From Alkalicoccus daliensis (GTDB lineage: Bacteria; Bacillota; Bacilli; Bacillales; Salisediminibacteriaceae), in contig NZ_FNIL01000002.1 in NCBI RefSeq assembly GCF_900103955.1, positions 186,001 to 250,000 on the forward strand: DNA of 64,000 bases, given 5' to 3'. The notes beneath the pieces are model-generated. The model worked only from the letters and a program-made list of their open reading frames with translations. It did not search any database and was not told the DNA's origin. Made by a program: the position numbers and the translations under genes. Position 1 is the stretch's first letter. Every line of letters starts with the position of its first letter. This document shows positions 6,278-45,725 of this stretch, in pieces.

Positions 6278-7339
6278 GTGAAAAAGTTTGGTCTGAGTTT
6301 AGTTGCAATGAGTTCGATTGTATTTATGGCAGCATGCGGAGGAAATGAAGGAAATACAGGCGGTAACACGGATAACGCCAACGCTGCTTCTAATAATGAA
6401 GCGAACGCAGAAGAAAACAATGAAGCGAATGCAAATGCAGAAGCAAACGAAAATGCTGATAACGCGGAAGCTGCAGAAGACATTTCAGGTTCTGTCAGCA
6501 TCGACGGTTCCGGTACAGTGTATCCTTTGATGTCCCGAATTGCAGAAGATTATATGACAAATGTGAATAGCGAAGTAAGTGTAGAAGTAAGCCGTGCAGG
6601 TACAAGTGCCGGTATGCAGCGTTACGTGCAGGGAGAAACAGATTTCTCCAATGCGTCCCGTGAAGTAAAGGACGAAGAGCTGGAAGAAATGGAAGCAAAC
6701 GGAATTGATTCAATGGAATTTCCGGTAGCACTGGACGGTATGACTATCGTAATTCACCCGGAAAATGACTGGGCGACAGAAATGACAGTGGAAGAAGTTG
6801 AATCTATCTTTATCTCAGGTGCTGTCAATGACGATGATGTAGTAATGTGGTCTGATATCAATGCTGACTGGCCGGAAGAAGAAATTAATACTTACGGGCC
6901 GAACGAAAACCACGGCACGTACGAGTTTTTCGTTGATGAACTACTTGATGAGCAGCCGCTGAAGGAAGGTACAAACCTGCAGCAGGAGTATCCGACACTC
7001 GTGGAACTCGTAAATGATGACGAAAACGGAATCGGCTTCTTCGGCTTCGGATACTATGAAGCGAATACAGATAACCTCGGCGTTGTTTCTATCGATTTCG
7101 GTGAAGGCAATATTACTCCTGCACTGGATAACATCGACTTAGAAGGTGACTATGCACCGTATACACGCCAGGTATTTACAAACTTGAATCTTGATTCCGC
7201 CCGTGAAAATCCTGCGGTAAAAGACTTTGCGACGCACGTTTTCGATGTAGCTGATGAACTTGCTGCAGACGCTGGATTTGCACCGCTGCCGGAAGATGAA
7301 CTGGAAGAATACAAAGCGGAAGTTGAAGCAATCAATTAA
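6278..7339 (+). CDS. pstS: Phosphate ABC transporter substrate-binding lipoprotein PstS
   Basis: A 353-residue lipoprotein that captures phosphate outside the cell for PstCAB. Signal peptide with lipobox MAAC (Cys20), then an Asn/Ala/Glu-rich linker to about residue 68. The binding domain starts VSIDGSGTVYPL, with the phosphate-loop features SGTVYP and SRAGTSAGMQRY and the segment GPNENHGTYEFF. GTG start at 6278, set by AAGGAGGA at 6262-6269. First gene of the pst operon behind the PhoP boxes; probably expressed above the distal genes because of the hairpin that follows. Confidence 0.96.
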   Translation: MKKFGLSLVAMSSIVFMAACGGNEGNTGGNTDNANAASNNEANAEENNEANANAEANENADNAEAAEDISGSVSIDGSGTVYPLMSRIAEDYMTNVNSEVSVEVSRAGTSAGMQRYVQGETDFSNASREVKDEELEEMEANGIDSMEFPVALDGMTIVIHPENDWATEMTVEEVESIFISGAVNDDDVVMWSDINADWPEEEINTYGPNENHGTYEFFVDELLDEQPLKEGTNLQQEYPTLVELVNDDENGIGFFGFGYYEANTDNLGVVSIDFGEGNITPALDNIDLEGDYAPYTRQVFTNLNLDSARENPAVKDFATHVFDVADELAADAGFAPLPEDELEEYKAEVEAIN

Positions 7340-44984: not shown

Positions 44985-45725
44985 ATGCTAGCTGCGGTAA
45001 AAGATAAATATTTTCAATTGCTGGCGAAAAGATCCATAAAAAAATTCGGGAGAGAAAAAATTCAGTCTCTTGTTATCCCGGAGAAGCCAATGAGCGAATG
45101 GCGTGTTTCTTTTTTAACGACGGCAGGTGTACATTTGGCGGAGGAAGACCCTTTTGACGTAGAAGCAGGGGACTGGAGTGTACGCTTTATTCCCGCAGAC
45201 ACTGAACCTGAAAAGCTTACCGTGTCCCACACGCATTACGATACGAAGGCAGTAAAGGAAGATGTAAATACAGTATTTCCGCTGCATGCACTGCGGGACC
45301 TGGAAGCGGAGAAAAAAATAGGGGCAGTCACGCCGACGCTGTTCGGGATGATGGGGTATATACCTAGGACAGACAAGCTGATGAAAAAAAGCGTGCCTAT
45401 TATCCTGAAGCGTCTGCAGGAGGAAAACGCAGATATTCTGCTGTTATCCCCCGGCTGATATATCTGCCATCAATCGGTCGGATTGATACAGAAAGAAGTG
45501 GAAAAGGCAGGAATTGCTACAATGTCGATGACTCATTTTCCAGATTTAACAAAGCTTGTACATGCCCCGAGAGCGCTTCACATCAAGTTTCCGCTGGGAA
45601 GAACATTTGGCCAGCCGGAAAGAAAAGACCTGCAGAAGAAAATCACAGTCGATATGTTAGATAATCTCACAACAATGGAGAAAGAAGACTTGAAAGTTCT
45701 CTCCTATCGATGGAAGAGGGACTAA
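44985..45725 (+). CDS. Probable selenoprotein of the glycine/sarcosine/betaine reductase B (GrdB-like) family, in-frame TGA read as Sec
   Basis: A 246-residue protein if TGA at 45456-45458 is read as selenocysteine (residue 158). The first half has GrdB-family landmarks: SFLTTAGVHLAEEDPFD, SHTHYDTKAVKEDVNTVFPL and FGMMGYIP. The second half continues in the same frame with YICHQSVGLIQKEVEKAGI, HAPRALHIKFPLGRTFGQP. The TGA falls exactly on the first position of the family's (C/U)-x-x-C redox motif, giving U-Y-I-C before HQSVG. A hairpin at bacterial SECIS distance follows (separate entry). ATG 44985 is set by AAAGGGG at 44970-44976. Conventional annotation would split it into 44985-45458 and 45483-45725. 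Substrate unknown; orphan members are thought to be thiol/selenol redox enzymes. A nonsense-mutated pseudogene is the alternative. Confidence 0.85.
45456..45492 (+). promoter_or_regulatory. Bacterial SECIS element for the in-frame TGA
   Basis: After TGA (45456-45458) come 17 bases, then loop GGTCG (45476-45480). The stem ATCAATC (45469-45475) pairs with GATTGAT (45481-45487), 7 bp. After a small internal loop, TCTG (45463-45466) pairs with CAGA (45489-45492). The E. coli fdhF SECIS has a GGTC apical loop about 18 bases after TGA, so spacing and loop fit SelB binding. Confidence 0.8.

What the first reader, a model, noticed from the sequence alone, without database searches (positions are those of the whole stretch)
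44985..45725. Probable selenocysteine-containing GrdB-family protein in a Bacillus-type genome
Seen: one long frame is interrupted only by TGA at 45456-45458; both sides are coherent parts of one protein. The TGA sits at the first position of a U/C-x-x-C redox motif (U-Y-I-C-H-Q-S-V-G). Known: members of this reductase family carry either Cys or Sec here. A hairpin with a GGTC loop follows after 17 bases, close to the E. coli fdhF SECIS (about 18). Chance loss of frame at exactly the Sec site plus a SECIS is unlikely. Sec use is rare in Bacillaceae, and conventional callers would report two fragments.
Basis: partly seen in the sequence, partly recalled or inferred. Interest (0 to 1): 0.93.

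Follow-up and report, generated by a model that had tools for sequence, protein, structure and literature searches.

The report
PrdB-like selenoprotein without its partner
A salt- and alkali-loving Bacillus relative encodes what is almost certainly a real selenium-containing protein, its 'stop' codon being read as selenocysteine; it belongs to a branch of the proline-reductase selenium subunit that lacks the partner needed for that reaction, so its usual name is probably wrong and its job, likely a redox one, is open.

Summary
ATG 44985 to 45725 is one 246-residue frame broken only by TGA 45456, inside UYIC, with a SECIS-like hairpin 45469-45487 (GGTC loop after 17 nt). All 14 close homologues keep the TGA; the hairpin shows compensated changes and its codons are unusually conserved. 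The same genome has tRNA-Sec, selB, selA and a selD with its own in-frame TGA. In 397 genomes of the order, 50 of 50 genomes with a TGA-type homologue have selA (181 of 397 overall); the 3 with a TGA-less homologue lack it. So it is a real selenoprotein gene, and Sec use is not rare in this order. Refinement: it is neither GrdB nor PrdB proper. It misses every NCBIfam cut-off and its genome has no GrdE/PrdA (PF09338). On a 49-row tree, PrdA-less and PrdA-linked homologues part at a fully supported branch. Some PrdA-less relatives sit beside other UGA-containing redox genes (in one subclass a Sec-peroxiredoxin directly upstream, 11 of 11 regions read), but the window gene does not. Two relatives carry UxxU. 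Best reading: a Sec/Cys redox protein of a PrdA-less PrdB-like subfamily that the papers seen list under 'D-proline reductase'.

The parts
44985..45725 (+). PrdB-like selenoprotein gene, 246 aa, Sec at residue 158; no PrdA/GrdE partner found in the genome
44970..44976 (+). Shine-Dalgarno-like AAAGGGG, 8 nt before the ATG
   Evidence: sequence
45456..45458 (+). UGA read as selenocysteine, first position of UYIC
45463..45492 (+). SECIS-like hairpin: inner stem 45469-45475 / 45481-45487, GGTC loop 45476-45479, outer helix 45463-45466 / 45489-45492
45465..45467 (+). Cys codon (TGC) of the U-x-x-C motif, predicted resolving partner of Sec; invariant in the 19 rows of A1, replaced by a second TGA in two distant members (L144, L145)

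Best explanation
44985-45725 is a working selenoprotein gene. Shown by sequence: UGA 45456 is kept, followed by a hairpin with compensated changes, in a genome with the Sec genes. Inferred from established Sec biology: SelB with Sec-tRNA binds the hairpin and inserts Sec instead of terminating, giving a full-length protein of about 28 kDa. The protein is a Rossmann-like alpha/beta domain (predicted) with Sec158 and Cys161 as a U-x-x-C redox pair at the start of a helix. It belongs to a PrdB-like subfamily without PrdA, so it cannot do the pyruvoyl-dependent D-proline reaction as known. Most likely (inferred from the motif, the UxxU variants and the neighbours of relatives) it cycles between selenol/thiol and a selenenylsulfide, taking electrons from a thiol donor and handing them to, or reducing, an oxidised partner in the cell's peroxide/thiol defence.
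For: TGA kept in 14 of 14 close homologues (the other 13 are 54-70% identical to the window) in different chromosomal contexts. Hairpin changes and codon constraint. tRNA-Sec, selB, selA and a selD with its own in-frame TGA in the same genome. In 397 genomes of the order, 50 of 50 with a TGA-type match of at least 180 bits have selA, and 131 of the other 347; Fisher p 1.2e-19, not corrected for relatedness. No PF09338 in 58 of 60 genomes searched, own included; PrdA/GrdE seeds hit 0 of 56 regions around PrdA-less members and 18 of 18 PrdA-linked controls. Tree: 29 PrdA-less against 19 PrdA-linked rows part at a 100/100 branch. Redox context of relatives: Sec-Prx directly upstream in 11 of 11 UPLCHRT regions read; Sec-AhpD-like, Sec-DsbA-like, deiodinase-like and Trx-like genes beside others. 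UPIU in L144 and L145. AlphaFold2 model pLDDT 89.9.
Against: No experiment. The window gene has no such redox gene beside it: none of the seeds hit the window or eight of the nine other members of its 10-row clade; the ninth, L009, has one reductase-like hit 4 kb away. The redox role therefore rests on the motif and on relatives. In one search, 21 of 30 PrdA-less regions show no Sec-redox seed. One TGA-type genome, G034, has no selA match, but it is 76% complete. Hairpin energy alone is unremarkable. No solved structure of the family was found. In the GOS survey 'PrdB' has 110 Cys against 235 Sec homologues (passage of PMC2398784), so Sec is not universal in the wider family.
Confidence: 0.82

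Rival explanations
1. It is a functional D-proline (or glycine-type) reductase subunit, the Sec half of a Stickland reductase, with a partner too diverged to see.
For: Best family match is PrdB, 160 bits over 212 residues; Pfam GRDB passes its cut-off.
Against: No PF09338 match in the 99.98% complete genome, while the same model hits 26 of the 30 genomes that I passed on (some of these hits are GrdE); 160 bits against a cut-off of 300, where a true PrdB (L074) scores 430; YICHQS instead of GTCHRS; split on the tree.
Confidence: 0.05
2. The TGA is a real stop: a pseudogene, a sequencing error, or two separate short proteins.
For: Standard ORF listing gives two fragments, 159 and 80 aa.
Against: TGA kept in 14 of 14 close homologues with both halves conserved and no other stop; hairpin; link with selA. 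A really broken copy is seen in G671, which has no selA over cut-off.
Confidence: 0.02
3. It is a selenoprotein, but its work is in membrane, sulfur or selenium handling rather than peroxide defence: a cytosolic partner of the VTT-domain, flippase-like and rhodanese proteins found beside its own subclass.
For: VTT-domain gene on the same strand within about 5 kb in 10 of 21 window-type regions; LPG_synthase_TM (L124, L126, L128) and rhodanese genes (L126, L128) in some; selA about 1.1 kb upstream in L124.
Against: 0 of the 10 members of the window's own clade have the VTT neighbour; VTT and rhodanese genes are common and have many roles (recalled).
Confidence: 0.2

Closest known systems
PrdB, 26-kDa selenoprotein subunit of D-proline reductase (TIGR04483)
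   Same: Size, single PrdB-type domain, UxxC at the same place, Sec at UGA; best family match
   Different: 160 bits against a cut-off of 300; no PrdA in the genome; YICHQSVG instead of GTCHRSAV; other side of the main branch of the tree
GrdB/GrdF/GrdH, protein B of glycine, sarcosine and betaine reductase (PF07355, TIGR01917/01918)
   Same: Homologous to its C-terminal part; Pfam GRDB matched over its cut-off
   Different: 246 aa against profiles of 431-435; no GrdE partner; below the NCBIfam cut-offs
'Proline reductase PrdB' selenoproteins of marine metagenomes (PMC1088965, PMC2398784; passages read)
   Same: PrdB-type Sec proteins with UxxC; 42 Sec against 1 Cys in the Sargasso Sea set, 235 against 110 in GOS
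   Different: The Sargasso paper assigns them to proline metabolism in the passage read; whether they lack PrdA and belong to this subfamily was not tested here

Membership tests
Bacterial selenoproteins (Sec at UGA) | In-frame UGA at a redox motif, kept in homologues, with Cys at the site in other family members | tested here: met
   (Cys in L027)
Bacterial selenoproteins (Sec at UGA) | SECIS-like hairpin just downstream, conserved as structure | tested here: met
   no dedicated SECIS predictor was available
Bacterial selenoproteins (Sec at UGA) | selA, selB, selC (tRNA-Sec) and selD in the same genome | tested here: met
   for selC, selB and selA; selD recognised by its GUGCKIGPSDL motif (recalled), not by a family search
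Bacterial selenoproteins (Sec at UGA) | Selenium found in the full-length protein | not testable with these tools
   needs selenium-75 labelling or mass spectrometry
GRDB (Pfam PF07355) | Score over the gathering cut-off | tested here: met
   30.5 against 22 bits
D-proline reductase PrdB (TIGR04483) | Score over the curated cut-off | tested here: not met
   160.3 against 300; true PrdB control L074 430.3
D-proline reductase PrdB (TIGR04483) | PrdA partner encoded in the genome | tested here: not met
   no PF09338 match in G000
Glycine/sarcosine/betaine reductase protein B | Full-length (about 435 aa) with GrdE partner, over TIGR01917/01918 cut-offs | tested here: not met
   43.6 against 602.2 and 51.4 against 65.45 bits; no PF09338
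PrdB-like subfamily without PrdA (defined here) | On the PrdA-less side of the tree, no PrdA/GrdE nearby, UxxC followed by [HQN]-x-[ST] in most members | tested here: met

The most novel reading that the evidence does not exclude
The PrdA-less PrdB-like proteins are an undescribed family of almost obligately selenium-dependent redox enzymes, functionally coupled to Sec-peroxiredoxins and related peroxide/disulfide selenoproteins (a two-selenoprotein relay), and a large part of what surveys count as 'D-proline reductase' selenoproteins, above all in aerobes, has nothing to do with proline.
Probability: 0.4. Interest if true: 0.68.

Novelty: new variant of a known kind. Interest (0 to 1): 0.52.

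Why it matters
An aerobic-type Bacillota lineage (habit recalled, not tested) keeps a Sec protein homologous to an anaerobic amino-acid reductase subunit but without the partner that makes the reaction possible. In the order sampled, every genome with a TGA-type gene also has selA (50 of 50), so this family may help to explain why these bacteria retain Sec. The Sec-Prx plus PrdB-like pair of a sister subclass gives a directly testable hypothesis for a family now carried under a misleading name.

Full report
What is there. The window lies in contig C12 of a 3.78-Mb genome, 99.98% complete. From ATG 44985 a frame of 246 codons runs to TAA 45723 with a single TGA at 45456. Its product matches PrdB (160 bits) and more weakly GrdB and its kin.

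Is the TGA read as Sec? Among 60 genomes, own included, 20 have a homologue. Fourteen, the window included, form a close group, the other 13 being 54-70% identical to the window; all 14 have exactly one in-frame TGA, at the same column. Of the six remote ones, four are short proteins with a TGA (G033, G034, G053, G054), one is a Cys-type PrdB (G048, no selA) and one is a full-length GrdB with TGA (G010). The hairpin is present in all 14; L018 and L025 each carry a compensated change in the inner stem, and an outer pair varies C-G, U-A, U-G. Against: 6 of 13 distinct rows break one of the two outermost pairs, and some measures are not far from shuffles (39 of 500 as high). The codons of the hairpin are more conserved than those of other invariant residues.

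Machinery. tRNA-Sec scores 59.2 bits, over the Rfam cut-off of 47, and ARAGORN calls it SeC. It lies beside selB (387 bits); selA (518 bits) and selD are on the same contig within 6 kb. The selD frame holds a TGA at GUGCKIGPSDL. A peroxiredoxin on C11 (AhpC-TSA by Pfam) also has a TGA, at TPGU. So three selenoprotein genes are seen; the four FdhA-type matches have no stop.

Co-occurrence. In 397 genomes of the order I counted, from the listing, 61 matches of at least 180 bits; 58 hold at least one TGA, in 50 genomes, and each of these genomes has selA at E 2.1e-138 or better; selA passes its cut-off in 181 of 397. The three matches without an in-frame stop (G048, G573, G689, one genus; only G048 was read, Cys) lie in genomes without selA over cut-off. 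Ten weaker rows were not counted; one of their genomes, G671, has only broken pieces and no selA over cut-off. One of the 58, a second copy in G497, has two TGA and a TAG. An exception from the earlier set is G034, TGA-type without a selA match, 76% complete. In the phylum sample, a Cys-type PrdB beside PrdA is seen in G263; selA was not searched there.

What it is not. PF09338, which hits GrdE and PrdA, is absent from 58 of 60 genomes, including every genome of the close group. The same model hits 26 of the 30 genomes that I passed on from the 118 with matches. In 56 regions of 4 to 17 kb around PrdA-less members no PrdA/GrdE-like sequence is seen; in 18 of 18 PrdA-linked control regions it is, and also in L055, the region of the PrdA-linked G048 (the window itself is covered). 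On a careful tree of 49 rows the 29 PrdA-less rows lie on one side of a 100/100 branch; on a quick tree of 72 rows the split remains at one branch, though the PrdA-less rows are then several deep lineages. I therefore speak of a PrdA-less subfamily or grade, not of a proven clade.

Subclasses and neighbours. Motifs: UYICHQSVG (the window's; 21 rows), UPLCHRT (11), UPI[CU]HQS[IV]A (5), UG[SAE]CH (3) and forms of UP[ILV]C[QN]Q. True PrdB has UGTCHR[ST]A. In the 11 UPLCHRT regions read a Sec-peroxiredoxin (TPVUGAQM) ends 11-136 nt before the gene; other possible members were not fetched. Elsewhere there are an AhpD-like protein with C[HQ]YU (L108, L096, L111), DsbA-like proteins with UPFC (L104, L106, L127), and a deiodinase-like and a thioredoxin-like protein with an in-frame TGA (L103). 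MerR-type regulators with a C-terminal Cys cluster lie in 5 of 11 clostridial regions (L105, L107, L109, L111, L113; found by a pattern, L107 confirmed by Pfam). In the window's subclass 10 of 21 regions have a VTT-domain gene on the same strand, some with a pyridine-nucleotide disulfide reductase, LPG_synthase_TM or rhodanese genes; none of the ten members of the window's own clade has the VTT gene. The gene thus moves among contexts while keeping its TGA.

Two distant members (L144, L145, different families) have TGA at both ends of the motif, UPIU. A second Sec exactly where Cys normally stands supports the view that the two positions form the redox pair.

Mechanism. Shown: the conserved UGA, the hairpin and the machinery. 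Inferred: SelB-dependent insertion; a Sec158/Cys161 selenenylsulfide cycle; a thiol donor; a partner in peroxide/disulfide metabolism. The model (pLDDT 89.9) puts the motif between a strand (151-155) and a helix (159-174) of a Rossmann-like fold.

Known or new. PrdB as a Sec family with UxxC has been listed since 2005 and was among the most abundant in sea water (passages of PMC1088965 and PMC2398784). A 2026 review lists it as D-proline reductase in the passages read and, in its section on operons (read whole), does not name this pair (PMC13188914). A 2016 survey counts 131 'proline reductase' selenoproteins in 110 organisms, and a 2022 review ranks the family in the top five (passages of PMC5029168 and PMC9312934). 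A 2006 table gives Bacillales three selenoproteins (passage of PMC1794560). I saw no statement in these passages that PrdB homologues without PrdA form their own group. None of the five NCBIfam release 20 families that this protein matches reaches its cut-off.

Noticed in passing
L144:4980-5621 and L145:4989-5630: PrdB-like genes with two in-frame TGA codons at both positions of the motif (UPIU), in two different families of the order.
   Followed up: partly
L054, L052, L057, L131, L137-L139, L146, L148, L149, L151: Two-gene unit: Sec-peroxiredoxin (TPVUGAQM) followed by a Sec PrdB-like gene (UPLCHRT).
   Followed up: partly
L070:1494-1952 (own genome C11): Peroxiredoxin gene with an in-frame TGA at TPGU, a further selenoprotein candidate of this genome.
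   Followed up: partly
L056, TGA at 6458 on the minus strand (own genome C15): selD is itself a likely selenoprotein gene (GUGCKI), near selB, tRNA-Sec and selA.
   Followed up: partly
L106:1206-1775: DsbA-like gene with TGA at UPFC and, further on, an in-frame TAG in an otherwise conserved frame; decay or another recoding, not resolved.
   Followed up: no
L105, L107, L109, L111, L113: MerR-type regulators with a shared C-terminal Cys cluster near PrdA-less PrdB-like genes in clostridial genomes.
   Followed up: partly
L124:2468-5729: selA, a flippase-like membrane protein and the PrdB-like selenoprotein gene in a row in G734.
   Followed up: no
L131:3214-3576 and L141:6544-6173: Possible thioredoxin-like genes with WASW-U-RC near PrdB-like genes (weak hits).
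   Followed up: no
window:18324-18410: c-di-GMP-I riboswitch on the minus strand; L21 leader at 2193-2263.
   Followed up: no
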